Below, one piece after another: positions 22,213 to 64,000 of a DNA stretch of 64,000 bases. The position numbers were made by a program, and so were the translations under genes. The DNA lies in the NCBI GenBank assembly GCA_947034895.1, contig OX344764.1, forward strand, positions 3,224,001 to 3,288,000, written 5' to 3'. The notes beneath the pieces were generated by a model, which saw only the letters and a list, made by a program, of their open reading frames with translations, was not told the origin of the DNA and did not search any database. This DNA comes from Rhytidiadelphus loreus. Taxonomy: Eukaryota; Streptophyta; Bryopsida; Hypnales; Hylocomiaceae. Within the stretch, counting starts at the first letter, position 1. The number at the start of each line of letters is the position of its first letter.

Positions 22213-22528
22213 TTAGAATACGCAAATAAATCTAAAATTGTCAAGGAAGACAAGTTCCCCAATTCCTTTAGCAAGGCCCCTAATTTAGAACACCCAATTA
22301 AATCTAAAATTGTCAAAAAAGACAAATTCTCCACATCCTTTGGCAAGGCCGCCAAGCTTGAACACTCACTCAAATTGAAGGTAGTCAAGGAAAACAAATC
22401 TTCTACTTCCTTTAACAAGGCGACCAAACTTCTACTTTCACCTAAATTGAGAGTAGTCAAAGAAGACAAGTTTCTCAATTCCTTTGGCAAAATCGCCAAG
22501 TTTGAATACCAACTTAAATCAAGAGTGG
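22213..22528 (-). pseudogene. LRR units between the CACTA insertion and the frameshift
   Basis: Four further 72-bp LRR units, read in a frame one base off from the main LRR frame. They encode recognisable segments such as LRNLSSLTTLNLGESRSLVAL and FSLTTFNLSECSSLAALPK. The frame runs into the right end of the CACTA element at 22212. They were part of the same receptor before the one-base deletion and the insertion. Confidence 0.8.
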
Positions 22529-25864: not shown

Positions 25865-26060
25865 CTACATTCAATGAAACATAAATTATAGTGCATTACA
25901 TCTTCATGTACAAGCTTCGAATAATAATTGATATTTCTAACATATTTCAACATTCATAATTCTTGAAATGATATTAGATTCTATATTCACTAACTACATT
26001 CAAATGGATACATGAAAATGTGCAATTCTATTAATGTCAATTGTACAAAAAGAACAGTAC

Positions 26061-27104: not shown

Positions 27105-27224
27105 CTATACAAATACAAAAAATAGATCTTATAAAACAAATTAGACTACACTCAAAGCAATGAAAGCAAAGTACCAAAGAAAATTACGTAAATTAAACAT
27201 CATTAAATGAACTATAAAGTTTAC

Positions 27225-28758: not shown

Positions 28759-29132
28759 CTGCACAATATTTAATATCTATTGTCAATGAGATATTTCAAT
28801 TAGGATGTAAAAAAAGCATATCTTCCAAATGAAACATCATTGAACACCATCTTGTAAGACAATGGTTTATCTATTGAAACTAGAATACATACTTTTATTT
28901 TAATCATATACATATATGCAAAACACAATAATTCTAATAGAAATCAAAGTAAATCCAATAGAAAACAATTGTCATGTAATTTGAAAAACATTCTATTCTA
29001 ACATGGCCTTTTCGTTTAGTAACACCTACTACATAACATTTGTGCTTACCTAATGAACCACGCAAAACCCATGTATTCCCAAAAGGTTGCCATAGCAAGG
29101 AAGTTGACCATCCGCATCAAAAAGTGTGCCAT

Positions 29133-35392: not shown

Positions 35393-36620
35393 TCAGTAGC
35401 ACCTTGAATCCGGAATGCCAATCCCCTCACCTTCCACCACATCCAAAAATTCATACGCATGTCCAGTGCGGCGCCTTTGTACCCATTGGGACAATGATTC
35501 GTTGACAACTTCAGGGAATTTTAAGCGAAAAGAAGGAATGTCGGGGCATGCGTGTAAAGCATCCAATAGTGGCCGCAGGTACCGTTTCAAGTATTCCTTG
35601 TCATCTGCCAACGTGTGCATCCACTTCAAATAGAACGGGGTACTCACGATTACATTGGGTTCAGGATTACACTCCACCCTACTGGCCTTACTATCTACAA
35701 TCACAGTATTTGCAGCACAGTAACGAGGCCACAAGGCATACACTAACTCCAATTGCTTCCCACGAGGAGATGGCCTCCCATCTTCCATCTGCAAGTTCTC
35801 ACCCTACGTAGCAGACCATATAAACAGTGGCGCTGCGTGGACACCCTTCAGCTCCCCTAACATTGCTGGCACAACATCATCCATGTACAAGGGACTACCA
35901 GTGCTCCAAAATCCCACAGCGAAAGATTGAAAGCAACGGGTGAGAAAAGACTTCAGCCAGGGCCGAAAAAATATTCTTCGGACAGTAGTGTATGCGCTCC
36001 TACGAATTCGTGGGTGTGGATTACGGGTAGACAGCATACTACTGTCTAACAAGGTACCGTGCACATTGAAGATCACTAATTTGGAGGGCCCACTCTCAAT
36101 GCATACAGGCAGAAGTCCGAGGTCACCGCGTAGCTTCACCTCACTCGATGTACCTTGACGAACGTCGGGAGGAGAAGGTACCTTTTGCGGTGACTGAGCC
36201 GGCTTCTTCAACTTCCTCTCCCCTTGAGATGCCATCGCCGCTCCTTCATCGGTGGCTTGCGACCCTGATTCGTCCTCCGCTGGCTGTTCGGTGATGGCAT
36301 CGCCGGACAAAGGCACGGAAGTTGGAGCCCCAACAGGGATAGAGCGGTCTGCTGAAGGCCCAGCGGTGTCGGACGCCTGTTGCCTCGAATCCCCGACATG
36401 AGGTTCTTCATCTGCTGCAGCAGCCTTCGCTGCCGTCGTCTCTTCTTCACGTCCCACTTCCTTGTCTTCCTCACTTTGCTTGTGTCCGCAGGCGACAGGG
36501 ACTACCAAACTAGCTGCCTCCATTTCCTCCGTTGGCCCAAACGCCCATGCTGCATCCCCACTAGAAGTAACATTCCGTTCAGTAGCTCCAACTGGCTTAA
36601 GGAAGTCCTCACGCTACATG
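35393..36620 (-). pseudogene. FCP1/NIF-like (HAD-type CTD phosphatase) domain inside the CACTA minus-strand gene, catalytic aspartates lost
   Basis: An Ala/Glu/Pro-rich linker precedes a domain resembling NLI-interacting-factor/FCP1 phosphatases: SKLVIFNVHGTLLDSS, FFRPWLKSFLTRCFQSFAVGF, GFWSTGSPLYMDDVV, APLFIWSAT, then ATNTVIVDS-like NTVIVDSKASR and EYLKRYLRPLLDALHACPDI. In active members the first motif is DxDGTL; here it reads NVHGTL, so both the nucleophile and the acid/base aspartate are replaced. A TAG stop interrupts the frame at 35804-35806, and another lies near 36612. The domain sits between the TNPA-like part and a TNP1-like C-terminal part. I infer a captured host domain with a non-catalytic role. 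Confidence 0.68.
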
Positions 36621-44400: not shown

Positions 44401-44841
44401 TGTAGCAAGGGGAGTCGGGTTGTATTCTGAGTGACCTGCTTCTGGAGAAATCCGAAGTTGTGAGGGTCAACCAGTTTGTTCCTTGTTTGTGACGGAAAGA
44501 TCTTTGGGTACGTGTCATTAGGAAGTTAGAGTTAGTGAAATACAAGGAGTGGTGTTGTCCTTACCCCTCCGGAAAAGTCAGTGAGGACCCTCTGAAGGTA
44601 AAACAGAGGTATCGAAAACCGTGTGTTAAAGCTACGGATCTGGTGTTTGTGATAATCCAGATCCGGTAGAGAGTCCGGATAGAGATAAAATCCGGTTGGG
44701 GAGTGAAAATTGAAGTAGTTACAATAAACCGGATTAGACGGAATTTAGAACACCCTCTGGGGTTCCCTGGGACGATATTCCGTGTCATCTTGCCATGTTT
44801 TTGTGGTTAAGAGCGCTTACTACAGTATTACGCGTACGACA
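41409..44841 (+). mobile_element. 3.4-kb element without long terminal repeats, inserted in TNP2 (TSD ACCAT)
   Basis: Borders are exact: ACCAT (41404-41408), then TGTCGGAATCC at 41409; ..CGCGTACGACA ends at 44841, followed by ACCAT (44842-44846). The first and last five bases are inverted (TGTCG/CGACA), with a weak longer inverted match (TAATA and TAGTA blocks). I found no long terminal repeat. It is GC-richer than its surroundings and full of CCGGA. A TATA-like TATATAAAC at about 41732 precedes an open frame (41838-43739); 1.1 kb of non-coding DNA follows, with a second TATAAAAGG at about 43924 and AATAAA near 43991. TG..CA ends with a 5-bp duplication suggest an integrase-type enzyme. Confidence 0.82.
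41838..43739 (+). CDS. Reading frame of the 3.4-kb element, one in-frame TAG
   Basis: Starts at ATG 41838 (MAEVSTWYTVPARKISPVYP) and stays open in one frame to 43739, except for a TAG at 42711-42713: 633 codons. The first third is globular (LLRFLLPILYPDKSSRV, NLAKNKPNPLSTYLLHLYQH) and loosely recalls the 'putative plant transposon protein' domain. A Glu/Pro/Lys-rich linker follows, then the TAG, then a coiled-coil-like stretch (ECGEDWIRTAKDYHDRLTEI, MRTEIRNLKMERDALKGKL), then an acidic and basic tail (SSKKQRKGK). No reverse transcriptase, integrase or DDE domain is visible. It could be a Gag-like or accessory protein of a non-autonomous element. Function unknown. Confidence 0.6.
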
Positions 44842-44846
44842 ACCAT

Positions 44847-45847
44847 CATCCACGCATGCGAGCGCGGTTGTGTTCTCTTTCGGGGACCCTATTCTGACGC
44901 TCTCTGTTGTCCTAAATGTGGTGGTTGCCGATACAGAGATGAAGCTAGGCGTTGTTTTCCAGTGAAGGTGCTCCGTCATTTTCCAATCATTCCACGACTA
45001 CAACGAATGTTCCGGAATCCAAGCATATCCAAACTCATGGTGTGGCACACAACAAACCGTAGCAACCAACCTGGAGGAGATGGCCTAGTCAGGCACCCGT
45101 GTGACTCAAGAGCGTGGCAGCACTTTGAGGAGAATGTGGACCCTTCTTTTGCTACAGAGCCTCGAAATGTTCACTTTGCGTTGGCTGCAGACGGAGTGAA
45201 TCCATACAAGCAGAGTAGGTCATCATGGTCAACTTGGCCGGTTATGCTCTTAAATTATAACCTACCTCCATGGTTGAGTACGAAAAAGTTCTTCATTATG
45301 TTGTCTCTTTTGATTTCAGGGAAGGAATCTGTGACATCGGATGCCTTTGATGTATACTTAGAGCCTCTTGTAGAAGAGTTGCTTCAGTTATGGAATGGGG
45401 TTCCAGCATACAATGTCACACAGGAAGTGGGATCAAAGGTTTTTTCATTGAGAGCCATGTTGTTGTGGACCATGCATGATTTTCCGGGCTACGGCACTGT
45501 AGGAGGTTTCTCCCACCAAGGCTTTGCAGCGTGTCCGTGGTGTGGTGACAATTTAGGAGCAGAGCATTCTACTGAGCTTGGTAAATGTACATTTGGTGGG
45601 ACTCGTCGTTGGCTCCCTGAAGGTCATCCCTACTGCCCTACAGGTCGGAGGGAATGAAGGACCATTTCACCGGAAACATGGAAAACCGTCAGAAGCCACG
45701 CACAGTGACAGTTGAGGACCAAATAAGGCACGCTGAAGAATATGAGGCATGGAAGGCTGCTGGATACAGGGACGGTGCTGTACGGGACCCTTCAAAAATC
45801 CATGGCGTAAAGCATCTAAGCATTCTTTACCGCTTGCCATATTGGAA
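44847..45847 (+). pseudogene. TNP2 transposase, core part after the insertion
   Basis: Continues TNP2: HACERGCVLFRGPYSDALCC, CPKCGGCRYRDE, FPVKVLRHFPIIPRLQRMFR, HFALAADGVNPYKQS (core acidic residue), then WTMHDFPGYGTVGGFSHQG and CPWCG. All are family hallmarks. Near 45655 the frame shifts by one base (the TGA at 45655-45657 overlaps the ATG of the next frame), after which the protein continues MKDHFTGN...HLSILYRLPYWK to a donor site GTAAGT at 45848. The shift and the insertion together inactivate it. Confidence 0.82.
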
Positions 45848-46078
45848 GGTAAGTGACCGTGGGCATTAACAAAGGTTGGGCTCGTGCCTCGTAAGCGACT
45901 GTAATGTGACTTACATTTGACTTACACCCCGTCTTTGCGGTCTTTTGAAGTCACGGAAGAGAATTTTGTAAGTCACGGTTTAGTCAAACAGAAATCTAAG
46001 TCATTGGGAATGACTACTATATGACATATCGGTGACTGTCTAGACAGAAACTAACAAGAAGTTTGGCATGGCATGTGT

Positions 46079-46990
46079 GTGGTGGCAGTTGCTTCTGATT
46101 CGGAACACTTTGGACGTAATGCATTGTGAATTGAACCTAGCTAAGAATATATTGAAAACAATAACATGGAAGAAGGATACTGTAAAGGTGAGGCGGGATT
46201 TGCAGAGGCGGAACATTCGGAGGCACTTGTGGCTCACTCCCCATCCCCGGAAGCCAGGAAAGATGGTAAAGCCGCGTGCCTCATACGTGTTAACAGAAGA
46301 GGAGTTTGACAAGTTTGCAAAATGCATTGAGTCTTTGAAGGTGCCTAGTGGATATTCGTCTAACTTGAAGAGGAGCATTCGGAAAAAAAACTTTGGGGGG
46401 TTGAAGTCCCATGATTACCACATTCTAATGCAGCAAATCATGCCACTTGCTGTTCGAGGGTTGATGGAACCTGGTCCTCGTATGGCGGTCCAACGCATCT
46501 GCAAGGTATTTCAACGTCTATGCACAAAGGCTTACAACCCCTTGGACTTTCCCTCATTGGAAGCAGATGTGGCCGAAACCATGGCGTTGTTGGAGATTGA
46601 GTTTCCCCCATCGTTTTTTGACGTGATGACGCATCTTCCATATCATTTGGCAAAGGAGCTCGACTTGTGCGGTCCAGTAACTGCGAGGTGGATGTACCCA
46701 GTGGAACGTTACATGAAAGTATTGAAGGGATATGTGCGGAACATGGCCCGTCCAGAGGCGTGCATGGCGGAAGGTTATTTGCAGGACGAGTGCATCGGAT
46801 TTATAATGGAATACTTCCAAGGTTTTGAGGGCACTACAAGACGAGTGTGGGATGAGGACGAAGAAATAGGAGATGCTGAGGAAGTCTTGCAGGGGGGTGG
46901 AAGGCCATATGTAATGACTCCAGAGATGCGAGACATAGCCCACCAGTACGTCCTGTCAAATTCAACTGCTATGGAGGATCTTGTGGCGTA
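46079..46990 (+). CDS. TNP2 C-terminal part with DUF4218-like region
   Basis: Begins after AG near 46078 with LLLIRNTLDVMHCELNLAKN, the usual continuation of ..LPYWK in TNP2. The DUF4218-type region follows: GGLKSHDYHILMQQIMPLAV, CKVFQRLCTKAYNP, FPPSFFDVMTHLPYHLAKEL, RWMYPVERYMKVLKGYVRNM, ARPEACMAEGY. It ends before GTAAGT at 46991. The intron that follows holds a cluster of AGTGACT phrases. No stops within. Confidence 0.85.
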
Positions 46991-47297
46991 AGTAAAGCCA
47001 GTCACCCATGACTGTGATGCCATTCTTTTCCACTTGCACCGTTTTGCTCAAATATCTATAGTGAAGGAGGATTCGGAAGTCATGTGTAAGATGTCTTCAA
47101 GTCATATAGAAGTCAAAATATGCCGTGAAACTAAAAAATGACTGAAATGTGACTCACTTAAGTGACTATGAAGTCACCTTCTTTGAATGTGTTTGTTGGA
47201 GTTTCGGAGGTTCAAAAAGCAACACAGGCATGAATTTCTAATTTTTCATGCCATTCGTCCCGTATGAATGAGAATTGTATTGTTCTGGTATCCGCAG

Positions 47298-48027
47298 GGA
47301 GTGGAGGACTGAATCAATTGAAAATCCGGGCACCCTAGAAATGTCATCGTGGATTCAGCAGAGGTTGCAGAATGCTGATGTAGACTTAAGTGACCCCACA
47401 AACATGGACCGGTTCTTGCTGAGTAAGAAGCCAGCACAGAGGGCTATTCGCTACAAACGTGTCCTTGCATTTGGTAATCATTTCCGTGTGGAAGATGAGC
47501 AGACCAGGCACTTGTTGACCTACAACAGTGGCGTCACTTCCGTTTTCCAACATCCGTCAGAGAATGGAGATGAATCAACCGTGAACTACGTGGGAGTACT
47601 AAAGGATATATTGGAGGTGGATTGTGGTACATTGAGTACGCGCATCATCTTACTGCGTTGCGACTGGGTGAAAACCGAAGACACTCGAGGTAATCCCACG
47701 TATACACGGGACGAGTCTGGCTTCTTGTTGGTCAATTTTCGACACACTCTACCTCGCATGTTGGAGCCCTTCATTTTTCCGAGCCAAGCAACGCAAGTTT
47801 TCTTTTCAGACGTTGAAGGTAGACCTGGTTGGAAAGTAGTCTTACAAAAAGAGGCCAGAGTAAGACAGGAAGTTGTGGACACAGTGGATGCATTCATCTC
47901 CACTAGAGTAGAGAGTACAGGGCTTAGAGCTCCCAACACATTTCCCAATGTTTCAGAGGCAGTTGATCTAGTTGGAGCCACTGACTTGACGGAGGAAGAG
48001 AACTTATTAGCTCATGAAGCATATTAG
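47298..48027 (+). CDS. TNP2 terminal exon with DUF4216-like region
   Basis: Follows CCGCAG at about 47292-47297. Contains AFGNHFRVEDEQTRHLL, NYVGVLKDILEVDCG, ILLRCDWVKTEDTRG, ESGFLLVNFRHTL and FPSQATQVFFSDVEGRPGWK, matching the DUF4216 block usually found at the end of TNP2 proteins. Stop at 48025-48027, 736 bp before the transposon terminus. The fossil at 14.8-15.2 kb is its decayed relative. Confidence 0.82.
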
Positions 48028-48766: not shown

Positions 48767-51700
48767 TTTCTTAGTTCAAAACACATATCAATAATGGATA
48801 TTTTGAATGTTTCAATTAGGGCTCACCAATGTGCATTCACTTTTTGGATGCACAAACCAAAAAGGATTAACTTCAAAGTACTGTCCACACTAGAATTTGG
48901 TGCCTTAGGCATTTAGGGATTAATCAAGTGTATTTTTACTAGCTTCAATCCATGTCGGGCAAGGACAAGTAGTAGATAAAGTGTTTTCATTTATAATAAA
49001 AATATTTTACTCTCCTATTCAAAGAAATTAAAAAAATGTGTTAAAAAAAGTATTTCAATGATTAAACGTTATCTAATATAAAAGTTAATCTTCAAAGTCA
49101 TAGAGACTAAGTTGTGTCTTCGGGGAGATTTTAGGAAGTTCTAAAGATTTTTTTATGTGAGTTTTGTCATCTAAATTTCTTTGGGGAATTTCTTACATGT
49201 AATTGTAGTAAATGGTATTGAAAAAAAATTCTTTGTTGTAATATTGACTTTTCTATGGAACATGCTTTATCCATTGATCACCTTGTAGCGTATTTTCACA
49301 ACTTCTAATCCTTTGATGATTTTTGCAAAATTTTGACAAACACTAGGGCAATTGCATGAAACACTTGGACTTTATTTGCATTTTTCTATTTCTAGTATTC
49401 AGTCCTATAAGTAGTACTCTTATTTTTTAGTACCATTGGTCAATTTGGTAGAGAAAAGTTACCATCCATTTCCATCTAGATTTTATTTGGTATGTCAACA
49501 CATGTCCATTTTCTAGTGATAGAATTGATTGGTGAAGGTTGTCTTTCATCATCAAGGGTTGTCATAGGAGATGTCATTATGGGTGTCATTGGGAATGTCA
49601 TCCATTCATCTCAAGATCTTTGTACTACATAAGAGTGCCATTAAGGAATAAGGAGTGCAATTTTCTCAGAAACTATATGCGCTCACATTTTAGTTTTTAA
49701 AATTAGAAGGATTTTTTTTTATATTAGGAAAAAGTTTAGACATTGTTACGAATTTGAGAATGTTGGGCAATAAGAGAAGTTATATTTCCACTTTTTCATT
49801 ATTAAAAAAAATTGTTGTGATTGAAGACCACTCTGAAGATTCATAAACGTATTCTATATAGAACATTTTTCTGACTTTAGAGCATCAAAGTAAATGGAAG
49901 TTGGATTATTGTCTAAAACCTTGACAAAGTATTTACACCATCAAGTACACTAATAATGATATTTAGTGTTATGTTACTAATAGTGTTATGTTGACTCTTA
50001 CCACACCCACTCTAAATGTCAAGTGGTTTGCATTTAGAATTTAGGGTTCACCATCCCTTTGCCTCCACCTCCCTAACCTTGCCTGGCCGCCCTTTCTTGC
50101 CTCGTTGATCCCACCTCGCCACCTTTTCTCTCCGCACCCATCCTTTCTCTCTACTACCTTTATTGAGTGCTTGAGTAAAGTCTAAGTTCGCTTGGGACGC
50201 GGAGAATTCCATAGCAAACATGAGGTCCAAATCCATCACAAACTCACGCATTCAAAGGTTCATCTCAAAATTCAGGACCAATAAAATGTTATCAATTATC
50301 GTGTAGTTACTACTATTTTATGGGTGCGTACGTTAATTTTCAAATTATAGCATTGTTATGATGCGCACGATTGCTGCAAAGAATTGGCATTAATTTATAA
50401 TCTATGTTAACTATATGACTTCTTTACATTAATTGCAAATGTGCAAAAGACACAAATTATACACGAAAATTTATTATCTTTGTCGTGCATTTTATGTATG
50501 TTGAAACACACAAAAAATACATGACAATAATGTCATTGCTATTTGCAGTGCAATAACCCTTATTAAATGATATCAATGTTTTAACATTTACAATACAAAT
50601 GTAAATGTTAAAATGTTGATCATCATTCTAATTAACAATAATTTTTTTTAACTAAGTTAAATAGGTTTCAAAACCTGATTACAATGAATCCATCATTAGT
50701 ATAGGCCATCAAATTCTAGCTGGAACAAACTCCATGACTAGGCCACTAGAAAACTTGATTGTGTAGTGAAGGAAATGAACCCATTAATAGGCCACCAAAA
50801 AACTTGATGATATAGTAAAGGATTTTGTTCAATGGCACTCAGTGAATACAAAAGGTGAAGGGGTCCTTTGTATATAGAAATCCATTGTTTGTCATGGCAA
50901 AGGATATGGGATAACTGGGGAATGCTGTCGCATGAGCGTAGAGCGTAGAGCATGGATTATAAACTAAATTCTAAAAAAATTATTAGTTCATCAAAAGAAA
51001 AACCTATGACCGTGCTTAGATGAGACCTAAGACCGTGCAAGAAATTGAAATATATGATAGAAGAATAATATGCTACAATTTAAAATTCGTTTATTCAAAA
51101 GTAGAGAAATTTTTTTTCTCCCTCATTAAAAATATCATAATTTAATAGGCCAAGTAAAATCATATTTTTTATAGCAATATACTTATGCATTAAATGCATA
51201 AGTGAATATAAATTTGCAATGACAATAATTTCAATTTGGTGGTCATTAAAGAATTGAATTAAATAAAATGGAGCAAGCAAATTAAAAATATTCATAATAT
51301 ACAATATAAAAGCCATATTCATTTTACAAAGACTTTTTGCAGTCTTTTATTTTATCTTCAATTTAAAGATAAAATACTTTTTCTCATTTCTAGAATTTAT
51401 TTAAATAGACAACACCACGAATTTCGTGAATTTCATTTTCGAATCAGTATTTCAGCATAATTTTGGGTGGAAGTCAATTATAAATTCCTTAAATGAATTT
51501 ATAATTCTACCAGATGCCTCCTAATCTACGAGAAGTCTGAATATAATGAATATGACCTCATAGATAGTTTTGAACATTACCATAGAAAGTAGTTTACAAT
51601 AAATTTGGATCACATTAAGCCTATGTAAAATCAATTATAGTTTAAGGAAATGAAACTTTTTATAATTTAATGTAATTTCTTGGTAGTCATCAAAACGAGT

Positions 51701-52039
51701 TTTTCATATAATCTGAGAAGATCTAAAGAAAATGCAATCATGGTTGAAATACAAAACCAATTAAAAAAATGTAAACATCAATTGAAATAATTGTACAATT
51801 TGTTTAGATATTGTAAACCATATTGTAAAACATGAGTGTGACATTTAAAATTAGAAATTGAAATTATAACAAAAATTAAATATTATAATAGGGGACAAAC
51901 CTTTTAGTTCAGTGATGGATTGTGACAAAGAAATTGAAAATCAAGAAGTCGGTGGCCCTTTTAGTCTCACCGATTAAATTAAAGTAGAAAATGATACCCA
52001 AAAAATGGGTAGAGCATGCTAGAGATTTTAATCCCTACG
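48767..52039. other. AT-rich intergenic DNA
   Basis: About 3.3 kb between the CACTA element and the stop codon of the ParB-methyltransferase-like gene. Contains no coding sequence I can support. A small GC-rich patch at about 50050-50230 gives a 67-codon minus-strand frame of low-complexity type. Downstream UTR of the next gene probably lies near 52000. Confidence 0.5.
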
Positions 52040-55000
52040 CTACTCACAATGAACATCATCATCACAATTTGCTGCGTCATCTACCAACTGAAGAACTCTT
52101 TTGTCGCCACGAAATTTACGAGACCTAGAAAGAATAGGAGGTGCTCTAACAAATTCGTCTGCTACATTACGAGCATAAATTGGTAATAGGAAAGTTTTAG
52201 GGAGACTATTCACTATTTCCTTCCTTGTTGATTGAAGAATAGAGGTCCTTGAAGAAACTGTAGTCACTCTTGAGCTGCATCGTTTCAAAATATGAAGAGA
52301 ATTAGTTGGTGAAAGATACTGAAACAATAACAAGTATGAGGGATCAATTTTCAAAGTAACAATTGTATATAAAAAAGAATGAAAGGACTTACGTACAGAA
52401 TAAGTTTGTAGCTTGAACTACTGGTACTTCGGAATCTGATTCAGCATCTTCATCCGAGCTAGTAATGTCTTCATTGATCCGTTGCCGCTTCGAAACTGGG
52501 GTTGATTTCTCAATAATAAGGGGTTGTAGAAGAGCATCGAAAATCAATGTATCTTCTTCGAAGGCTACAATGTGACGGCCTGACCTACGACAAGCATGAA
52601 TAGAGGAACCTGGAATTCATGAATTCAGAAATTAGATATAACTGATGAACTTCCAAAGACAAAATTAGATGAAAGTGAAGTCACCAAAATAAACAAACAA
52701 TAAAACAAAAATTTGATGAATTGAAACAATTGATAAGCAAAGAAGTAGCTAATGTAACTCATACCAATATAAATCAAGAAGGATGAAAATTAAATGAAAA
52801 GAATTTTAAACCTGTGGATGCAGAGCAATCGAACACCACATCGCCAATTACTGAAAAAGATTCAACAAGAATCTGCATTAGACCAGAGTCTTTTTCTCGC
52901 GAACCTCGCCAAGGAACATTGCCGTGCAAAAGCTGTGACTCTTTTGTCACCATGTTGTGTAGCACATCATCGAAGTTGACATCAATGCCAGCTGTGTCCA
53001 AATGTGGTACCATTTGGATTTTGAAACGAGAACGACGGAGGTCTTCAAAGTTCCTTACAAGTAGTTGAATACCAAAAATGAGAGTCTGCATAGAACAATT
53101 TCCGAGACATAAGAATAATATGCATTCAGAGTAAGATAAACAATAAAAATAAATAAATGTTGATTACAGGGAAAAAAGGATTTACATACCGTCTTCGTTG
53201 AATCACGAGGGTGGGTTAAATGAAGACGATTGATCCCAGTCCATTTGCGAGAAACTTTAAAGTGAAATGCTCGACAGAATCCTTTCAAGTCTGATTTTAC
53301 TTGACTCGAATCGGAATGAAAGATTAGTAAAGCTCCGTCGTCGTGCAAATGACTTCCAGCGAAATCAAAAATCGACTTCAGGAAATTCGAATGAAGAATG
53401 TTCCACGGTGGAACAACAGATGTAGGATTTGATACCCCCGGAACAGGAAGATCCTCGGGAATATCGAAAATCATTAGATCGACAGCTTGAGAATGGAAAA
53501 CAGTGCCTTTGAAAAATCTTTCTTTATCTCTCTTGTACTGTTAAAAAACAAGAATTAGAAAGGAGAACAACTTTGTAAAAGTCAAAAGAACTAGTAAGAA
53601 TATATTGAAGCAAATGGAAGATGAAATCTAAAATCTACCTTGTCAAGAAAAGATTGAAGTTCGTTCCACCCCGAAGGAAATGATCCATGTTGAATACGGT
53701 GGTTGAGAAGTGAGTGCAAAGATCCATTAAAAATAAAACTATCCACTTCTGGTAATGTCGAATCAATTGTCAGTGGCACTGGTACATAGCCCAGTGAAAG
53801 ACGAGAGATAGTAAGATCGATAGAGGAACTATCTCGCTTACGTGTGCCCTCTGTTGGAGAAGCTGAAGAAATTTGAGTGCCATCTCCACCAGATCCACCA
53901 ATTATAGGCAAATGATTGGGTGCCTTACCTGTAGCCTTAATTGTGGCAACTGCTTCAGCAGCCTGGGCCTTGACACTAGCCACCAAACCAGCTTTAGACG
54001 CTTTTTCTGCTTTCCTGAGTTCTCCTTTAATCTTTTTTGCCTCCGCTTTTTCAGCAGCTCGCTGCATTTGTTTCATAGCTTTAATCTTGTCTTTCTCATT
54101 CAAATGAAAAACATCGAGAGTAAGATCCTGCTCTGTAAGGGTTTCAAGATCAATTGGATTTGGAGGACGACTGCCTCCTAATCCCTTCTCTGCATCTTCA
54201 ATCGCTTTCTTCTTGGATTCTTCTTGTTGAGGGCAGAAACTTCCTCCACAATCTAAGTACCAACAACCAGCATTGAGGTGTAGGACACCCCATGATCGAA
54301 TCAAATCAAGTGAGTACATGCATTGTTCCATGGATGTCTTATCGACCCACGCTTGAAAGAAACCCGGAAGCTGATCCCGTGCCATGGCATCCTTGAGTAC
54401 CAATTCGAACATGAAGTATCTGCCAAAATAGATAAAAAAAAAAGTAGTGAAATATAAAATGAACATACAGGAAGAAGACAATAATTGACAGCATTATAAA
54501 CTCAGTAAATGAATTGTACCTGTAAAGAACACGCTTCACAATGCGTGATGTATAATTATACGAACTAAATGCTTTAGTTCGTGAATACGAATCTTTGCCT
54601 CGAAACAAAGACGAGAATCCGTGCACCCAAATGCGAACACGCCAGTACTCTACGAATTCGGCCGGAGACAACGGTAGCTTGGAAGGATCTATTAAAACAG
54701 TAACGCCTTCTTCGGATTGAAGCCTCTCATACTCGGTGCAGAATGCTTCCTCCAACTAAAAAGAAAAAAATCAATTTAGTGAATATTGCATAATAATTTG
54801 AGTTAAATTACAAAATATTAGTAAGGGAACTTTGAGTACATTACAAGAGAAATCCATTATGGCAAAAGACACTTATAGATCCCCCAAAACAAGCCTTGTT
54901 TAGCCAAGACTCGAAGTCCTTATCCGAGAATGGTTTGCTAGGAAAATGGGCAGCCTTTCTTGTTTCAGTACCAGAGTTCTACCAAAACAAACATCTCACT

Positions 55001-56468
55001 TTAAAAAAAATAGGAGCCACAGATGTTGCTAGCAATTGAAGCTTGTCCAGTGTCATCTCAGGTTTTGAATTCTTGCTCCAATGTAGGGTGACCTTTACAA
55101 AAAACAAAAAATACAATTCAATAAAAAAAAACATTGATGCAGAATCATAATTTATCACCATTGCTTAATGGGCCAAAGTAATAAAACAAGTCACTTGAAA
55201 TACAATTCAAAATGATGGATAGATTATGAAATCCAACCTGAGCCAGAAACTCATCACCAAGTGCAGGATGCGCAATTGCTAACCATTTGGAAAATTGGCC
55301 CTTGTAACTGTTTGTCTTAACCTTTGTTGCTTCAAGCATTACACTCGTGATTTCTTCGTCAGTCCTCGAAATTGATGGATCTTCCCCTAATAATGTTCTA
55401 ACTGCAACATCTGCAGCATCAGCAATTTCTTGCTGCACATAGAAACATCACATTTAGGAAGGATATAAAGATATATTTTATGAGCATAAAAATAAAATAA
55501 AAATTCACATTTGAAACTATAGAAATAAAAAACGTCTTTACTCACCCGCCATAAAAATGAAATGAACACATCTTTTGTGAGAGGATACCAACTTTTTCCT
55601 CTTACAGGGTTTCGCAAACATTTATTATACTCCCTATCGGGAAGAATGTCTTTGAAACTCTCCAAGCTCTGTGTACCTGTAGCTCGAATCCTATACAAAG
55701 TATGCACTAGGTTCGTCTTGACGTGGCTGTTTTCATTGGACCTAAAAAACATTCAAATTATAAGAAAATGAACCATATCATCATTGTCGACAAAAACAGG
55801 AAAATGGAAATAACGTGAAAAGCTTCTTACTTGTTGATATCATGCATGGCATGTAAGAGTAGCCCAATTCTTCCTGTAGGGTCCAAACAAATGCTATCCA
55901 CCGAAATGTGCCAATTTGGGTCCTCTTTATGAACTCGATCAATGAATCTAGTCCAAGCTTGAAATCTGTGATTCCCGTCACAGATGAAAAACATTTTTCC
56001 CAACAAATGATGGTGATTCTTGCTTTGCCGTAGTCTATCATCAAAACGATCACTCTCCAATTTCCACAATGGGCTCATTTTGGTTTTATGATCATCGGTC
56101 AAAGCTTGAATTATACCATTCTCATTGCACACTGAAACATAAAAAACACTTGAACCAGGTCTATAACCATGTGTAAAATCAGCCTCCAGCTTCTTGATGT
56201 CGGAGTCCAATGATGGGCGGACAATGGGCATTGGAATCAAACGACAAAGCAGAATCGAAAACCAGGATTCGTCCTTTGGTAATATTCTCATTGCCTCAAT
56301 ACTTGCAATGGAATTCACCTTTTGTGATTGACGCAACTCGTGTTCAGTTTGCTTCGGCTCTTCAAGATTGTCATTCTCTGGATCACTTTCCAGAACTGCC
56401 TCTTCACTTTCTGGAAATGCTTCTTCAGCTTCTTCAGATTGGACAGCGTCCTCAGTATCAATTATCAT
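52040..56468 (-). CDS. ParB-like and DNA N4/N6-methyltransferase-like fusion protein, ten exons, 1070 residues
   Basis: Exons: 56468-55831, 55741-55546, 55432-55238, 55092-55000, 54755-54520, 54419-53639, 53537-53190, 53085-52812, 52609-52393 and 52274-52040. All phases agree and the sum is 3213 bp. Residues 1-50 are acidic. Residues 60-200 resemble a ParB/Srx fold, with ICDGNHRFQAW at 162-172 matching the D-G-x-H/N-R signature. Exon 6 has a Cys-rich patch (GCWYLDCGGSFC), then a Lys/Ala-rich helix. The C-terminus has beta-class methyltransferase order: LMIFDIPED at about 734-742 in the DPPY position, HDDGALLIFHSD, then GDVVFDCSASTG at 910-921 in the FxGxG position, followed by RRSGRHIVAFEED. 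Both motifs are degenerate, so activity is doubtful. An alternative first exon exists at 56630-56561. Confidence 0.78.
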
Positions 56469-56630
56469 TGGAACGTGAAACAAACAAACACAAACATATA
56501 AGCAATGTCTAGAATTTCTTATTCAGTTGGATTTCTTGTGAGTAATCATTATTGGCTTACTTGGCTGCCGGATGCGTCGCTGACTGATGCCTGCATTTGA
56601 GAACGGAGCACTCTTCTCGGATATTCCATG

Positions 56631-57822
56631 ACTCTTGAGGGAAAAAATGTCTTAGATCCCTACATCAGAAATAAGGCAATGGACAAAGACAAATTAAATA
56701 CAACGCAATTCTGGGTGATGTTGATCAATAACAAGTAGCCACTGCCAAATTCTATGACACCTAGAAGCTCATAAGTCGATTGAAACTGATCCAGTCGGTG
56801 CCGACCACATTGAAAGCATCCAAGGAGGTTAGCCAACGGTAAGGAAAAATCCAACACCCACCCAAATATAAAACTCTAAACAACATAATAAGATCAACAA
56901 AAACAACAGCTTGGCCAGTGCAGATATCATTAAACATTTTATTCCAAGCGGAGATTAGTCATACAAATTGCAGGATCTTCAATATTATTTACCACCGTAC
57001 TATTAATGACAATTTAATCAGAAAATAAGAAGTAATCAGTCGGTGCCGACGATACTGCAAGAACCACCACACTGCAGCCGCAAACGATAACGATTCTACC
57101 AACAAAATTGAGAATCACAAATACCCTGAATACCCGGAGACCGTGCCAAAAAAATATCAAAAATGCATAAAAAAAGGTTTGGTCCAGCAGCTGCAACGAC
57201 CACTTCACGAAGACCCGGTCGGCAACGACAGACCACGAGAACGAAGAGGGCAGTAGCTCAAATCTCTTTGAAAGCCTAGGATCTTGAAGTCTACTGCCCA
57301 CATTGAAAAGGCCAGCAAGTCCAAATTTTATCAATACTAAATCCCATGAGACTACATTAAGGTTCACCCCGCCTGAGCAATCACATTTGTGAACACATCC
57401 GAGTTTCGGAAATGTAGGTTTTGGCCTTAGTTTTCGCACTGAAGCTCCTGGACTCAACATAGGGTTTTTTTTTCAAGCTCCTTGTGTATAACCCTTTCCA
57501 AACCCCTACTGCTCATATCACCTCCTTCCGCTTGCCAGCTAGCTCTCAGATATTTGAGAGAAGCACGTTTATTGCCACTCAATGGCAGCAAGGTTGAATA
57601 AATCCACACTAGCAGACATTCTGCAAGCACCAAGCCAGGCACCCCAAGTTGCCACATCTGGTTCGAAAGGCCTGTAGTCAATCAAAAGCCTTGGCATTCT
57701 CCAAGTATCCAACTCGGCGACGGTACAACACAGGAGGTGCGCTGACCCCACAGTGAGTTGCCAAACCTCCATCCCTGCACTTCCACAGCCTCCAGCAGCT
57801 GCACCGCCCCTACCACCGATAA
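56631..57822. other. Interval between the ParB-methyltransferase-like gene and the UGT remnant
   Basis: Likely promoter and 5' region of the minus-strand gene at 52040-56468. Minus-strand open frames at 57014-57460 and 57454-57681 have no recognisable domain. Nothing else supported. Confidence 0.4.
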
Positions 57823-59310
57823 CTAGTCGGCAGCGACGATCCCCCAGAGTGACGGGGACTGCAGCCCCGACCACAACTCTGACCACATTTTTTTAACCTC
57901 CAACTGCTGCTCCGACCTCTCCACCGAGACCCAGTCGGCAGCGACGATTCCCTTGAGCGACGGGGACAGCAGCTTCGGCATCAGCTCCGACCACATAATA
58001 TTACCCTCCAGCTGCTGCTCCGACCTCTCCACCGAGACCCGGTCGACATCGATGATCCCTTGGAGCGACGAGGACTGCAGCTCCGACATCAGCTCCGACT
58101 GCATTCCGTTACCCTCCAGCTGCTGCACCGACCTCTCCACCGAGACCCGGCCGGCATCGACGGACTCACATGACGTGGAGTACTTCAGCTTCGCACGCGA
58201 TGCCCCCTGTGAATTTGGTTGGGTTCGTATCTTCAAACCTGCTGTAGGCGGTGTTGAACCTGTAAGAGTATATAAACCAATTTTAACATGTCATTTAGCC
58301 CAGTCAAGCACAGATCCGGCTTCCTAATGATAAGGTCATGAGATTTTAGGATTCCGATTCTGACCATAGTCAAGTGAATTATGATTTACTGTACTGACCT
58401 GCAATTGTGCTTTTGATCGGCTGGAATTGGCCAGGCCAAGTGCGGCACGCCCCAACAGATGCTCTCCAGAGTGGAATTCCACCCCCAATGAGTTAGAAAA
58501 CCTCGAAGAGCAGGATTGCAGAACACGTCCAGTTGGTTCACCCACTGCAATTGTACAAAATGAAATCCTTGTAAAGATTTCCGGAAGCACAGGGACAGCT
58601 TCGTCGTCTTCCAGACTAACGGCGAGGAGAAATGGCTGCTAGCAGGGCTTGTCCAACCATCTGAGGTATAGTGCTTCAATTTTGCTTAAACCTTGGATAC
58701 TGCCATTGGCTTGGCATGGCTCCGCAGGGACTCCAAGTAGGCTTTGTGCACCAGAGGTTCAACCGGAAATATACTCCGCAGACTAGATCCGTGGAGATCT
58801 GAACACGTACAACCTTCTCTGTTTAGGGTAAGAAATGCCAGTACCACAATGTTCACCGATGCTAACAGGAAGTCCAGGCGACATCAACAAAACAACAGTG
58901 GGACCTTCTAGTCAATTGAAATCTCTACTACCATTTTTGAAAATTGTGAGATTAGAATAAAATGCGTCTGAATAATTGACAGGTTGTTTAGTCACCTTCG
59001 AATGTGCGCGCCTAGCGGTATGGGCTGGGGAAGCGCAGATGACATACCTCGGTATGTTGAACTTGTCTAAAAATCTGTCGGAACAATGTGCACATCAGTT
59101 CTGCCATTGTATCACGAAACCTCATTTCGTTGAAGCCGGGAAATAAAAGGGAATTCTCAGAGTTTCCATAATCCTCAGAACTCTTGTTTTCAGAGCTCGG
59201 GATACTTGGAGGTCGCAACTGAAAGACGACGTCAGAAACAAAATGCGATCTAAACAAAATAAGAAACTTGACAAGTAAGGGAGTTCAGCTTCAATGATGC
59301 CCGCCTGCAC
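57823..59310 (-). pseudogene. UDP-glycosyltransferase (family 1) remnant
   Basis: The diagnostic PSPG box is readable at about 58540-58400: WVNQLDVFCNPALRGFLTHW, GWNSTLESICWGVP, AWPIPADQKHNC. Just upstream the expected PFLLAVSLEDDE and VPVLPEIF lie in another frame, so a frameshift separates them. About 59250-59050 encodes FPGFNEMRFRDTMAELM, like the acceptor-region segment of plant UGTs. After a donor GTCAGT near 58397 a C-terminal exon (58236-57823) carries RVSVERSVQQLEGNGM, like the terminal UGT helix region, but repeated three times. Missing N-terminus, frameshift and duplications indicate a non-functional copy. Confidence 0.68.
57860..58185 (-). repeat. 108-bp tandem repeat, three units of 36 residues, within the UGT remnant
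   Basis: Each unit encodes (R/W)VSVERS(V/E)QQLE...SEL...L.S.SL.GI..(V/A)D. On the plus strand the shared phrase is CCGACCTCTCCACCGAGACC, at about 57913, 58021 and 58129, spacing 108 bp. Because 108 is divisible by three the frame is kept. The unit corresponds to the C-terminal UGT segment that normally occurs once. Confidence 0.82.
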
Positions 59311-60245
59311 TAACTAACCTGCGTTCAGCCAATGATGAAGGCTGAGAATGCACGTCACCTGCGGGGACTGTGAAGAAAAAAAAAATCTGTCTTCGGGTGG
59401 GACGCTCTCGACATGGCCCCAAAACAGCAAGTTGGAAGACGTAGAGTGATCGGGTTGGATGCCCAGATTCAACACTGCGAATCCCTCTGCATTGCAAAGG
59501 TCGAGAAGCTCCGCTCACATGTGTCTGGAGATGCTGGCTACGGTGCAGCAGAAGCAAGATGGGATGAACTTCCGCGCCAACGGATCGGAGGACCTGCTGC
59601 TCGAACTCGACTAAAGTTCCAATGCCAGCGATTACTCGTGACAGGGGCGTACTTCACTACGAAATTTTAAAGGATTCCGACGGAAAACGTACGCAAGCAG
59701 GTATACCATAAATCCGAGCAGAACAAGATAGGCCAGGAGAAGAGACGACGAGGCAATGAGTAGTACGAAAGAAAAGAAATCACGAGGCGATTACAAGAGA
59801 AAATGCAATACGAAATAAACCTGAGAGTGACGATGGCGATGGCGACGACAATATCGTCACGTTCGGAAGTGCGACAGGCACAGCAAATCCTCACACCCTC
59901 AAAACCCTAAGACGGTCCATTAGAGTTCTTAAATGGGCCTTATCTTATCTTCCAAGATTGTCGTGAAAATTGGGTGGCCACAAATTACTCAACGAGTTTT
60001 TATTGTCAATGTTAAACTATTCTTTCGGGCAGACGAGAGGCAGTAAATAACTCATCTGGGTAAAACGCTAAAGATGCAAACTAGTCCGTACTAATGAATC
60101 AAGTTGAGATGAGATGGATCTTTCATGAGAAGACCTAAAAACCCTCAATAGCAATCATATTCGGATACTTTATGTCCTAACAACAAAAAAGTGGTAAAAT
60201 GGAAAAGAGATCAATTTTACCAACTTCTTTGCTATGATGGCAAAT

Positions 60246-60818
60246 TCAGTCTCGTTGTTTAATATCTCCACCTTCAACTCCTGATTCTCTGGTTGCAATA
60301 GACTTGATGGCAGATGGTAATTCTCCTATTGCAAAGTGAAGAACATCGCAATGTCAGTTCAATTTGAATTAAACTTTTAACTAAGCAACAACTTTGAATT
60401 ATTGAAAATATAAATACGATAAACAGTCCAAACATCTTAGCCCCCTCTGAACATTAAATGTTGCCATAAAATTGAATGTAGATAAAAATTTACGAATGTT
60501 AAGGCATGAAATGAGAACTTGAAGGGGCTTTCCATTGCAATTGATAGAAGCATTTCCTTCATGAACTTCAGAAATTGGATCTAACACCAGCTCTATCTGT
60601 GAACACAACCTTGTTGGCGATTCCAATGGCTCTGTGTTTTCAATACCAGTATATATGAGCTTCTTTGTAACACTAAGAATCTCGCTCAGACTATTCACTT
60701 TTTGAATCCTTTGTTCCCTCGATCGATCTAGTGCCTTTTTGGAGGAATAATGAGAGCTGGACCTTCTCCTACGTTTCCGTCTCTCAAGTGAATGGGAATC
60801 AAGATTACCTCCCTGCAT
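60246..60818 (-). CDS. Small basic (nuclear-type) protein, two exons, unrecognised
   Basis: Exon 1 60818-60494, exon 2 60325-60246; the donor GTAAAT and acceptor ATAG join in phase and end in TGA, giving about 134 residues. The N-terminus has a bipartite nuclear signal (RRKRRRRSSSHYSSKK). A Ser/Leu-rich helix follows (VNSLSEILSVTKKLIYTG), then GNASINCNGKPLQVLISCLN. The start is uncertain: ATG at 60818 is also directly followed by CAG, so this could be an acceptor and further exons may lie upstream. It is divergent from the transposase gene starting 1 kb away. Family not recognised. Confidence 0.45.
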
Positions 60819-61815
60819 CAGTCCAATGTACAGTCTAAGTATTCTAACCTAATGATAACTTTTCAAGAGACTAAACATATTGTATGAGTGTGTATATATG
60901 CATATGAAGTTTAAGGAGAAAGCAGACAGTCGTACCTTCATTAATTTCATTATGGTTAACTCATTTTTCAGTATTTATTTTGTACATGTCTTTATTAGAA
61001 TATCTTTAGTTTTCTTTAATACATAATGCTTTTTGATTTTTGATTTACATAAACATCTTCACTTTTTTATAGAAAGATATTTATGCTTTTAAAAGACATC
61101 AATAACCTCTTAGGTATTTATTGCGTACCGTTGAGTTCCAGAAATTGTGATTGAAGATATATCATATATCCATCTATATCTAGATCCTTTATATTTTTTC
61201 TTAATTGTTCTCTTTTTGGTGGTTGAGGTTTAATTGAATCTTCAGTTCCGAGACTACATATGTGACGGTTTGAGAGGTCTATGCACGTAAAACTGTTGTT
61301 ACTTTGAAGATTCATTTTTTGGTAAAATGAGTTATAATAATTTTTTTTACTAATGACCTAAGGTGATTGTAAAGCCTTGTACAATCTCCATCGCAGTTTC
61401 CGAGGAGGACAGTATATAATTGCAGAGAATTTGTAATTTTCAAATTCTTATTCCAAGAATCAATAATCTTCAAAAGTGAGGATATTATGTGCATGGAAGA
61501 TTCAAATCTGATAACCAATGTTTAATGACTCGTCATTTTGTAGATTGTACATTTTTAAGAGGATTTTAAATGTAGGTGATTTAGCATGATTCATTTGAAG
61601 TCTATGTGTTTTGAATTCGCTAACGGCTAGTACTAACTTAAATTGGATACTCTATTCAATCTTATAGTGATCTAGTCATTCACTGATATATGTCCCTATT
61701 CCCCCCATTTACCGTCCTTCATTTTTCATTTCAAATGATATCAATTGTGCTCTGTATTAGCTTCATCTTTGAATTAGGGAATTTTCGACAATTTTAGAAT
61801 GCACGGCGAGTTATC
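60819..61815. other. Divergent intergenic region upstream of the transposase gene
   Basis: One kilobase of AT-rich DNA between two divergent genes. Minus-strand open frames at 61118-61315 and 61312-61518 are short; the first has a protein-like stretch (RKNIKDLDIDGYMIYLQ) but no phase-compatible join to exon 60818. If the transposase belongs to a mobile element, its left terminus may be here, but I could not identify it. Confidence 0.4.
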
Positions 61816-63900
61816 ATGTCATCCAATTTGATAGTATTTGTGAGGTCTCCTGGAGAGACTGTCCCTATGACATTTTCAATAGGTGATTTGGGGTATGCTG
61901 TAGTCTCAGCTTTTCGTTTGAGTGTTCGATTTGGATTATCTGAATACTCAATACACATTGACGAAGAGGTATTGGATACTTCAACTGGTGAAGTGACTCA
62001 TACAATCGGTCAAGAGCCTTATCCTAACAATCTTTGTAAAGAATGGCGTTTGCATCCAGGTCGATACTTAGCATATGGTTTACGTGAGTCTATTGTAGGT
62101 GCGTCCCCTCGAGAAGGTGCGATTAGACTATCTAGCACATCCACTGAGCACACGCTTTTGTCAACAAGGATTAAAACTGAGCCGGGAATTGATGTCATCA
62201 CCATAGAGAGCGATAATTCAGAGGACTCCTCACCACCTAAAATGAAAACAAGTCAGAGTGTATCACATGAGCGATTAGTTCCAAGCAGTTCCTCTATGCC
62301 TTGTACAAGTGTAGACACCAGTCTTAAATCAAGTATTGGTCAGTCTATTATTCCTTATCTACGGAAACTATGTCACACCAAAGGTTCAAGGAATCCTTTT
62401 AAGAAGCTTGATTATGATACAATTCCAGTACATGATGTTCAATTTGTTCCAGCAGTTTTCAATGGTGACGTGATATTTGAGTTGCCTCCCCTTCAATCTC
62501 ACAATGTTCATTCTCAAGCTAAGCTTATGGTTGGAATGGAGAAACGCTATGATGGTCACGTTTGGTCCAATACACACACAACTAACATCAAGAACGTGGA
62601 CGGTCTGACTTTTCGATTGGCTTCATGTGTGGGTCATCTGCGTTGTGAAAACACAAAATGCAACTACCTATCTCGTGTGCATCGAACAACGGTGGTCAAT
62701 GAGACCGAATGGGATGGCTGTTCTCCCGTACCGTTCGAAGTTGGTACCCCCCCAGCTGGTTCAACAATTGTTTGCAAGATTTGTTGCGTAGTTCCAACCT
62801 GTATAGCAACATGTCCAGCCAAAATATATTATGTGGTTGGAGGCATGCACTTGAAACGAGCTTGTGTTCACTTCGGTCTTCATGATCACCCAGTAAAGAT
62901 TGGAGATTGTCGGGATTCAAAGGAAAAAATTAGGTCATTCATTTCTGAACAGGTAGAGAGGACTCCAACAGCAACAAATTCTTCGATCGTTTTAGAGGCA
63001 AGCAAGGAGCTATTGGGAGGATTTCTTCTTCGACGTGACGGAGCTCCACCTTCAACGTTGGGAATGGACGAGCTCCTTCCGGTTCTTGAGAAGTGCAAAT
63101 ACATGAGTTCTCCTAGCATTAGAAATGAAGTGACAACTTTCAAGTATTTCCGAAGGTTTGGGGTCATGGACAGTATCACCAAGCTTAGGGGATGCAGCAA
63201 TTGGTCTTTTGTCCAGGGGAACAAGTTTCCAGGTCAAGGATCTGATTCAGATAAAGTTTTTGTGTTCAAAATGTCTGAGTTGGGTCCTGGCAGCGGTGTT
63301 GATTTGGTAACGCGCATGCAAGAAGGTGGTGACCTCCAAAATGCTTGGATTATGTTTGATCATGTGAAGCGAGTGAAGAACTGGACAACAATGGCTTGTC
63401 ATGTTTACGATCCTACTTTCTGCCGTGTGATGACTATTGCTGTATGCGATATGCAGTCTGAGGATGCGATTGCCCAATGCAATTTCTGGACTAATTTGAA
63501 TGCAGTAATGGCCAAACATGGTTTTGCCCTCCCTTATTTCAAAGGCTTCATGGCTGATTGTGCAATGGCAAATTGGAATGCGGTCAGAATTATCTATGGA
63601 GGTGGCGATGCGTCTATGCCTATGCTCAATCGTGAACGCACTTGTCTTTTCCACTGGACTCAATCGATGGAGAAGCATACTAAAGCAGATATTCGGGCCG
63701 ACCTTCAAGATCAACATCGAAAGTTATGCAAGCAATATAAAGATGCAGCATCATCATCTGAGTCTGAGATTAGATTTCATGCCATTCGCTCGTGGTGGCA
63801 CTCTTCGGGAGCAACAACAGAGGAAGGGCTTCGACGACTAGAATTGTGGTTGGCATTTTGGCACTTTCGGTATAGACAATGGGGAGGATTCATGCAAATT
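61816..63900 (+). CDS. MULE-like transposase, first exon (gene continues beyond the window)
   Basis: ATG at 61816; open for 695 codons to a GTAAGA donor at 63901, so more exons lie outside. Residues 1-100 are globular (FSIGDLGYAVVSAFRLSVRF). A Ser-rich linker follows, then a Cys/His zinc-binding region (CVGHLRCENTKCNYLSRVH, IVCKICCVVPTCIATC, HFGLHDHPV). The catalytic region is DDE/MULE-like: AWIMFDHVKRVKNWTTM (first Asp), ITIAVCDMQSEDA-like MTIAVCDMQSEDAIAQC, YFKGFMADCAMANWNAV (second Asp), CLFHWTQSMEKH, and a later Glu-rich segment for the third residue. No stops in the exon, so the gene may be active or domesticated. Confidence 0.7.
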
Positions 63901-64000
63901 GTAAGATTCTTATATTTGTAAGCCCCTTTGCTTACTCTATTTACCTTTGATGATGCATGCTATATTGGGTACTGTATATCGTAATAATAAATATTTTTTA
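63901..64000 (+). other. Start of an intron of the transposase gene
   Basis: Begins with the donor GTAAGATTC directly after codons for GGFMQI. AT-rich and without coding potential up to the window edge. Confidence 0.6.

What the first reader, a model, noticed from the sequence alone, without database searches (positions are those of the whole stretch)
52040..56468. A ten-exon plant gene that fuses a ParB-like domain to a beta-class DNA methyltransferase-like domain
Seen: ten exons with fully consistent phases, 1070 residues, an N-terminal ICDGNHRFQAW block, and a C-terminal order of DPPY-position motif, then GDVVFDCSASTG plus GRHIVAFEED. Known: ParB-N domains fused to N6/N4 methyltransferases (PF01555 order) occur in phages and bacterial mobile elements; plant DNA methylation relies on C5 enzymes and MT-A70 proteins. 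Inference: an ancient acquisition from a phage- or virus-like source, now intron-rich. DPPY reads DIPE and FxGxG reads CSASTG, so it may bind AdoMet or DNA without catalysis, or act as a regulator.
Basis: partly seen in the sequence, partly recalled or inferred. Interest (0 to 1): 0.86.

Follow-up and report, generated by a model that had tools for sequence, protein, structure and literature searches.

The report
Methyltransferase-like passenger gene of plant transposon
What looked like one odd plant gene is the second gene of a 15 kb jumping element that is present in hundreds of copies in a plant genome (probably a moss), and it encodes a bacterial-type DNA-methyltransferase-like protein whose job in the element is not yet known.

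Summary
The exons are real: ten exons at 56468-52040 (minus strand), recovered again in related copies down to about 45% identity. The interpretation changes. The gene is not a lone plant gene but the second gene of a 15.3 kb DNA transposon (50917 to 66219-equivalent) with 10-bp target duplications, imperfect inverted ends and a divergently transcribed 1184-residue transposase that looks Mutator-like. Copies lie on all five large contigs, more than 200 by lower bound. This copy is damaged (in-frame stop, altered splice sites); copies with open frames exist. The C-terminal part is a beta-class amino-methyltransferase domain (PF01555, above cut-off in a homologue from the moss Ceratodon purpureus), under purifying selection. 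Its DPPY motif is degenerate here (DIPE, DMPE, DCPE, DCHE) but DTPF in Ceratodon. The ParB-like N-terminus rests on a DGNHR motif; no profile or structure confirmed it. A palindrome, GTCGG-NN-CCGAC, recurs between the two genes in subfamilies whose intergenic DNA does not align. Best reading: a transposon-encoded, DNA-binding accessory protein with an AdoMet fold that acts on the element's own control region, as VANC does for Arabidopsis VANDAL elements. A phage-acquired host gene is not supported.

The parts
50917..64000 (.). Part of the 15,303-bp transposon that lies in the window; it continues to C4:3290219 (window-equivalent 66219, L047:2219)
   Evidence: Abrupt end of similarity at 50917 in nearly all aligned copies and at L047:2219 in 4 of 5 copies compared; 10-bp target duplications
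50917..50951 (+). Left terminus, GGGGAATGCTGTCGCATGAGCGTAGAGCGTAGAGC; the right terminus is an imperfect inverted counterpart
   Evidence: 22-nt end found 18 times in the genome with up to 1 mismatch; termini printed
50907..50916 (+). Target-site duplication TGGGATAACT; right copy TAGGATAACT (9 of 10)
   Evidence: exact 10-bp duplications in L027, L028, L031
55831..56468 (-). Exon 1 of the accessory gene; holds the ParB-like region (CDGNHRFQAW at 55982-55953)
55546..55741 (-). Exon 2
55238..55432 (-). Exon 3
54877..55092 (-). Exon 4; contains the in-frame TAG 54981-54979; its donor reads ATAAGT here
54520..54755 (-). Exon 5
53639..54419 (-). Exon 6; Lys/Ala-rich linker and start of the methyltransferase-like domain
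53190..53537 (-). Exon 7; motif IV position FDIPED at 53468-53451
52812..53085 (-). Exon 8; start of motif I (DCSASTG, split by the intron)
52393..52609 (-). Exon 9; GRHIVAFEED
52040..52274 (-). Exon 10 with the stop codon
56794..56805 (.). Palindrome GTCGGTGCCGAC
57039..57050 (.). Palindrome GTCGGTGCCGAC
57218..57229 (.). Palindrome with 1 mismatch
57826..57945 (.). Two palindromes with 1 mismatch (57826, 57934), 108 bp apart in the tandem array
57789..58162 (.). Tandem array, period 108, 3.5 copies, between the two divergent genes
61816..63900 (+). Exon 1 of the transposase; exon 2 is L047:134-1603 (window-equivalent 64134-65603); 1184 residues, open

Best explanation
Shown: the gene is the second, divergently transcribed gene of a 15.3 kb two-gene DNA transposon of a probably moss genome, and it has been carried with the transposase through several diverged subfamilies under purifying selection. 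Shown for the fold: its C-terminal domain belongs to the beta-class amino-methyltransferases. Inferred: the protein binds DNA, most likely the palindromic sites (GTCGG-NN-CCGAC and near variants, often one per 98-108-bp tandem unit) between the two genes, and uses an AdoMet-binding methyltransferase fold, catalytically weak or dead in these subfamilies, to control the element's own chromatin or expression: a self-targeted regulator or anti-silencing factor, like VANC of VANDAL elements. The ParB-like N-terminus would be the nucleic-acid or partner-binding half; that step is the least certain.
For: Multicopy and dispersed; two copies 98.5% identical over 8.5 kb at other loci; 10-bp target duplications exact in L027, L028, L031. 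Divergent transposase within 15 kb for 12 of 117 gene copies compared with 86 listed transposase places, random mean 0.5 even within 40 kb; a 54.5%-identical transposase sits beside the 48%-identical gene in L041's element. dN/dS 0.15 for L028 against L037 and 0.09 for L042 against L041, 0.14 and 0.07 in the methyltransferase part. PF01555 in 6 of 6 members, best E 2.4e-6, and in the Ceratodon homologue above cut-off, E 4.9e-7. Palindrome: top of 1024 half-sites x 7 spacers by number of copies, exact in 8 of 13, within 1 mismatch in 12 of 13; all 5 sites of the window in this interval, 0.34 expected; intergenic DNA of the main subfamilies does not align; 1382 genome sites against 188 for the reversed control. 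VANC precedent: PMC5735166, passages.
Against: No binding, expression or methylation data. The palindrome has no site in L045, none of the TCGG-NN-CCGA form in 5 of 19 upstream regions, and many genome sites are not beside a listed copy, though the lists are partial; the transposase may be the binder. The ParB assignment failed every profile test, and Pfam ParB_N found only small, bacterial-looking contigs. The protein was not compared with VANC.
Confidence: 0.5

Rival explanations
1. Active amino-methyltransferase: the protein writes 6mA or 4mC on the element, which keeps it transcribed or protects it from silencing.
For: PF01555 over the whole domain in the Ceratodon homologue, with DTPF at motif IV; closest solved relatives by profile are CcrM and DpnA; low dN/dS in this domain.
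Against: Motif IV reads DIPE, DMPE, DCPE or DCHE in the copies of this genome that I read, with no aromatic residue. Replacing SPPY by APPA abolished activity of the rotifer N4CMT (PMC8885841, passages).
Confidence: 0.2
2. Transposition cofactor: the protein assists the transposase (end or intergenic-site binding, complex assembly) and has no epigenetic role; the palindromes are transposase or cofactor sites.
For: Divergent linkage to the transposase kept across subfamilies; palindromes are more widespread than the listed gene copies.
Against: The palindromes lie in the intergenic interval, not at the termini; a cofactor does not need a methyltransferase fold. Whether transposase copies exist without this gene could not be decided from the capped lists.
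Confidence: 0.25
3. One reading: a plant gene that arose by acquisition from a phage or virus and now serves the host.
For: A bacterial-type methyltransferase domain in an intron-rich plant gene.
Against: Element boundaries, target duplications, more than 200 dispersed copies, a transposase partner and mutated splice sites in this copy; no viral relative in three scans. A bacterial or viral origin of the domain in the deep past is not excluded.
Confidence: 0.03

Closest known systems
VANDAL elements (Mutator-like) with VANC anti-silencing proteins, Arabidopsis
   Same: DNA transposon with a transposase plus an accessory protein, and short motifs repeated, often in tandem arrays, in the element's non-coding DNA (PMC5735166, passages)
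   Different: I compared no sequences; the motif differs (YAGTATTAY there, GTCGG-NN-CCGAC here), and a PF01555 methyltransferase-like domain is not reported for VANC in the passages seen
Kyakuja, Zisupton and other fungal transposons that encode a TET/JBP dioxygenase
   Same: Transposons that carry a DNA-modification-type enzyme as a passenger (PMC12730594, passages)
   Different: Dioxygenase, not an amino-methyltransferase; fungal; other transposases; 8-bp duplications for Zisupton
CcrM/DpnA beta-class DNA amino-methyltransferases (PF01555)
   Same: Fold by sequence profile, motif order IV then I
   Different: Motif IV degenerate in this genome; motif I reads D-C-[ST]-x-x-T-G; eukaryotic, intron-rich, fused to about 700 further residues
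Bdelloid rotifer N4CMT
   Same: Bacterial-type amino-methyltransferase domain working in a eukaryote (PMC8885841, passages)
   Different: N4CMT is a host gene with a chromodomain and SPPY that helps to silence transposons; this one is encoded by a transposon
Hypothetical protein M758_1G295400, Ceratodon purpureus (P0001)
   Same: Same architecture along 1147 residues, profile E 2.5e-172
   Different: DTPF at motif IV; whether it sits in a transposon was not checked

Membership tests
Mutator-like elements (MULE) | 8-11 bp target-site duplication (range from PMC6446971, passages) | tested here: met
   10 bp exact in 3 copies, 9 of 10 in the window copy
Mutator-like elements (MULE) | Terminal inverted repeats (some MULEs lack them) | tested here: inconclusive
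   Imperfect; shared GAGCGTAGAGCG-type block near both ends
Mutator-like elements (MULE) | MULE-type DDE transposase by profile | tested here: not met
   No Pfam family at E up to 10 for the full 1184 residues; D/D/CxxH-like motifs were read by eye and their assignment is recalled, so 'Mutator-like' is a description, not a filing
Mutator-like elements (MULE) | SWIM zinc finger in the transposase | tested here: inconclusive
   PF04434 E 0.23, 11.5 bits against a cut-off of 19.6, on a 127-residue piece; not seen for the full protein
Beta-class DNA amino-methyltransferase (PF01555) | Profile match over the domain | tested here: met
   Ceratodon homologue 30.4 bits over cut-off 26.7, positions 2-217 of 221; 6 of 6 members match, best E 2.4e-6; the window sequence alone stays below cut-off, 16.9-19.3 bits
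Beta-class DNA amino-methyltransferase (PF01555) | Motif IV before motif I | tested here: met
   Alignment to CcrM 6pbd over 55-267 puts DIPE on DPPY and DCSASTG on motif I
Beta-class DNA amino-methyltransferase (PF01555) | Catalytic (D/S/N)PP(Y/F/W) motif | tested here: not met
   DIPE, DMPE, DCPE, DCHE in this genome; DTPF in Ceratodon
ParB N-terminal domain (PF02195) | Profile match | tested here: not met
   No hit in 6 of 6 members; PHROGs ParB-like in 1 of 6 at E 0.27; NCBIfam none; no ParB chain among PDB matches
ParB N-terminal domain (PF02195) | ParB/Srx fold | tested here: inconclusive
   Models of pLDDT 48.6 and 37.5; Foldseek without a match at E <= 0.001, top rows RuBisCO small subunits; the order of strands and helices is compatible by eye
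VANC anti-silencing proteins | Motif arrays in the non-coding DNA of its own element | tested here: met
VANC anti-silencing proteins | Sequence-specific binding and loss of DNA methylation | not testable with these tools
   Needs experiments
VANC anti-silencing proteins | Sequence similarity to VANC | not tested
   No VANC sequence was fetched

The most novel reading that the evidence does not exclude
A plant transposon that carries its own epigenetic system: a ParB-like plus amino-methyltransferase protein that recognises palindromic iterons (GTCGG-NN-CCGAC) in the element's control region and reads or writes a non-canonical mark (6mA or 4mC) there to escape host silencing.
Probability: 0.17. 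Interest if true: 0.9.

Novelty: new variant of a known kind. Interest (0 to 1): 0.68.

Why it matters
Transposons are known to carry TET/JBP dioxygenases, SET domains or VANC proteins. A bacterial-type DNA amino-methyltransferase kept under selection as the second gene of a plant DNA transposon, with a recurrent palindromic site in the element, was not described in the papers I could search. If it acts on the element's chromatin, it gives a testable case of a transposon using an amino-methyltransferase fold against, or instead of, host cytosine methylation. It also warns that plant genome annotations can list such genes as host methyltransferases.

Tried and rejected
ParB: Pfam, PHROGs, NCBIfam, PDB-sequence search, a local hhalign against three bacterial ParB proteins (probability 0.4 of 100, although DGNHR is set against GERR), two AlphaFold jobs and one Foldseek search; none confirmed the fold. 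Structure of the methyltransferase part: no usable model. First homologue search with the window protein alone: nothing; that query used an early 11-exon model that passed over the stop with a 47-bp intron, which I dropped. Viral relatives: none in three scans of viral contigs; genome contigs and metagenome contigs were not scanned. A full inverted 22-nt terminus: not present. Host-gene reading: rejected by copy number and boundaries. Ten paper searches listed no paper on such a gene; the library is open-access only, and I recall, unchecked, that reviews of eukaryotic adenine methyltransferases might already list related moss proteins.

Full report
1. The gene. On the minus strand, ten exons at 56468-55831, 55741-55546, 55432-55238, 55092-54877, 54755-54520, 54419-53639, 53537-53190, 53085-52812, 52609-52393 and 52274-52040 join in phase to 3336 nt, 1112 codons with the last stop. 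This copy is damaged: codon 381 is TAG (54981-54979), the exon-4 donor reads ATAAGT (GTAAGT in 11 of 11 other close copies), and an AG acceptor that 9 of 10 comparable copies have just before the ATG is missing. L031 shares the TAG. Of 20 fetched copies that I spliced (L026-L045), three (L028, L041, L045) had no stop and no frameshift; L035 and L039 are truncated. The close copies gave ten exons in L028 and, with L028 as template, in 8 of 10; L037, L038, L040, L042, L043, L044 and L045 also gave ten, L041 eleven. With another template L044 gave twelve.

2. It is a transposon gene. The exon-1-3 peptide found 196 matches over all five large contigs (118 of 2650 candidates scored). A peptide of the L044 subfamily found 151 (150 of 1353 candidates scored), at 63% identity or more in the listed rows; by my count 30 listed rows have a stop, the rest do not. 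Allowing for overlap between the lists there are more than 200 distinct places (counted by eye). DNA similarity of the close copies stops at 50917, and at the far end 4 of 5 copies stop at L047:2219 (L029's piece did not match). The element is therefore 15,303 bp. Ten-bp target duplications are exact in L027, L028 and L031 and 9 of 10 in the window. L027 and L028 are 98.5% identical to the window over 8.5 kb. The left 22-nt end occurs 18 times and has no exact inverted partner; the two ends share an inverted GAGCGTAGAGCG-type block.

3. The partner gene. A divergent gene starts at 61816, has one intron (63901-64133) and encodes 1184 residues without a stop. No Pfam family matches it at E up to 10; a SWIM finger is suggested at E 0.23 on a piece. 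By eye it has D/D/CxxH-like motifs and a C-terminal CxC...CxH, recalled as Mutator-like; with the 10-bp duplication I call it Mutator-like, not a proven MULE. Its 495-residue piece found 86 places scored of 1583 candidates. Of 117 accessory-gene copies, 12 have a listed transposase in divergent order within 15 kb (15 within 40 kb; random placement 0.5 on average, at most 4 in 1000 trials). The low fraction reflects the capped lists at least in part: L041's element, whose transposase was not listed, has one at 54.5% identity beside the gene.

4. The protein. The C-terminal part matches PF01555 in 6 of 6 members (best E 2.4e-6). A profile search of PDB sequences puts CcrM (E 0.0049) and DpnA (0.008) first and sets DIPE on DPPY. 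The one database homologue, from 7991 scored candidates, is a Ceratodon purpureus protein of 1147 residues (E 2.5e-172; one search found no other), with PF01555 above cut-off and DTPF at motif IV. In the copies of this genome that I read, motif IV is DIPE, DMPE, DCPE or DCHE, so catalysis is doubtful. Purifying selection is clear between subfamilies: dN/dS 0.15 for L028 with L037, 0.09 for L042 with L041; methyltransferase part 0.14 and 0.07; more distant pairs are saturated, close pairs give 0.28-0.33. The N-terminal region has a strongly conserved block CDGNHR..AW, but no profile, fold or PDB-sequence test made it ParB, and the ParB_N model found only five places on small, bacterial-looking contigs.

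5. A cis element. In about 3 kb upstream of the ATG of 13 copies (of 19 regions cut; six near-duplicates left out), every 5-base half-site with spacers 0-6 was counted. GTCGG-NN-CCGAC led by number of copies: 11 exact sites in 8 of 13, within one mismatch in 12 of 13, none in L045. With eight representatives it is in 4; 60 shuffled sets reached at most 3 (7 sets), GC-rich half-sites at most 2. Upstream regions of the main subfamilies do not align at E 1e-3 (L044 and L045 do, and the close copies do). The form TCGG-NN-CCGA is in 14 of 19 regions and in 0 of 5 gene bodies of 5 kb. In the 64 kb window all 5 sites with at most one mismatch lie at 56794-57945 (0.34 expected). Often one site falls in each unit of a 98-108-bp tandem array. 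The genome holds 1382 exact sites against 188 for the reversed pattern; only the first 50 were listed and many are not beside a listed gene copy, so the sites may belong to a wider set of elements or to the transposase.

6. Mechanism. Shown: transposon, linkage, selection, methyltransferase fold by profile. Inferred: DNA binding at the palindromes and control of the element. The nearest working precedent is VANC, which binds short motifs repeated in non-coding DNA of VANDAL elements and lowers their methylation (PMC5735166, passages). Rivals are an active amino-methyltransferase and a transposition cofactor.

7. Novelty. Gene-carrying transposons are known (PMC12730594, passages; PMC13317346, passages, in which the word methyltransferase does not occur). 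I found no description of this pair in ten searches of an open-access library, so novelty is provisional.

Noticed in passing
window 22529-28769 (-): Kinase (27141-28769), NB-ARC (26037-27104) and an LRR stretch of nearly identical 24-residue repeats (72-bp tandem array 22240-25468, about 45 copies): a resistance-type gene with a recently expanded LRR.
   Followed up: partly
window 44749-48027 (+): CACTA/EnSpm-like transposon pieces: Transposase_21 (tnp2), DUF4218 and DUF4216.
   Followed up: no
window 35804-36613 (-): A frame with an NIF-type phosphatase piece, PF03031 E 1.3e-5.
   Followed up: no
L001-L005 (contigs C199, C234, C293, C308 of G000): Small unplaced contigs with ParB_N genes that look bacterial, with a ParA-like frame beside some: associated bacteria or contamination in the assembly.
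   Followed up: partly
G000:C1:329344-330276: Seven exact GTCGG-NN-CCGAC palindromes within 1 kb with no listed copy of either transposon gene nearby; the flanks could not be fetched.
   Followed up: partly
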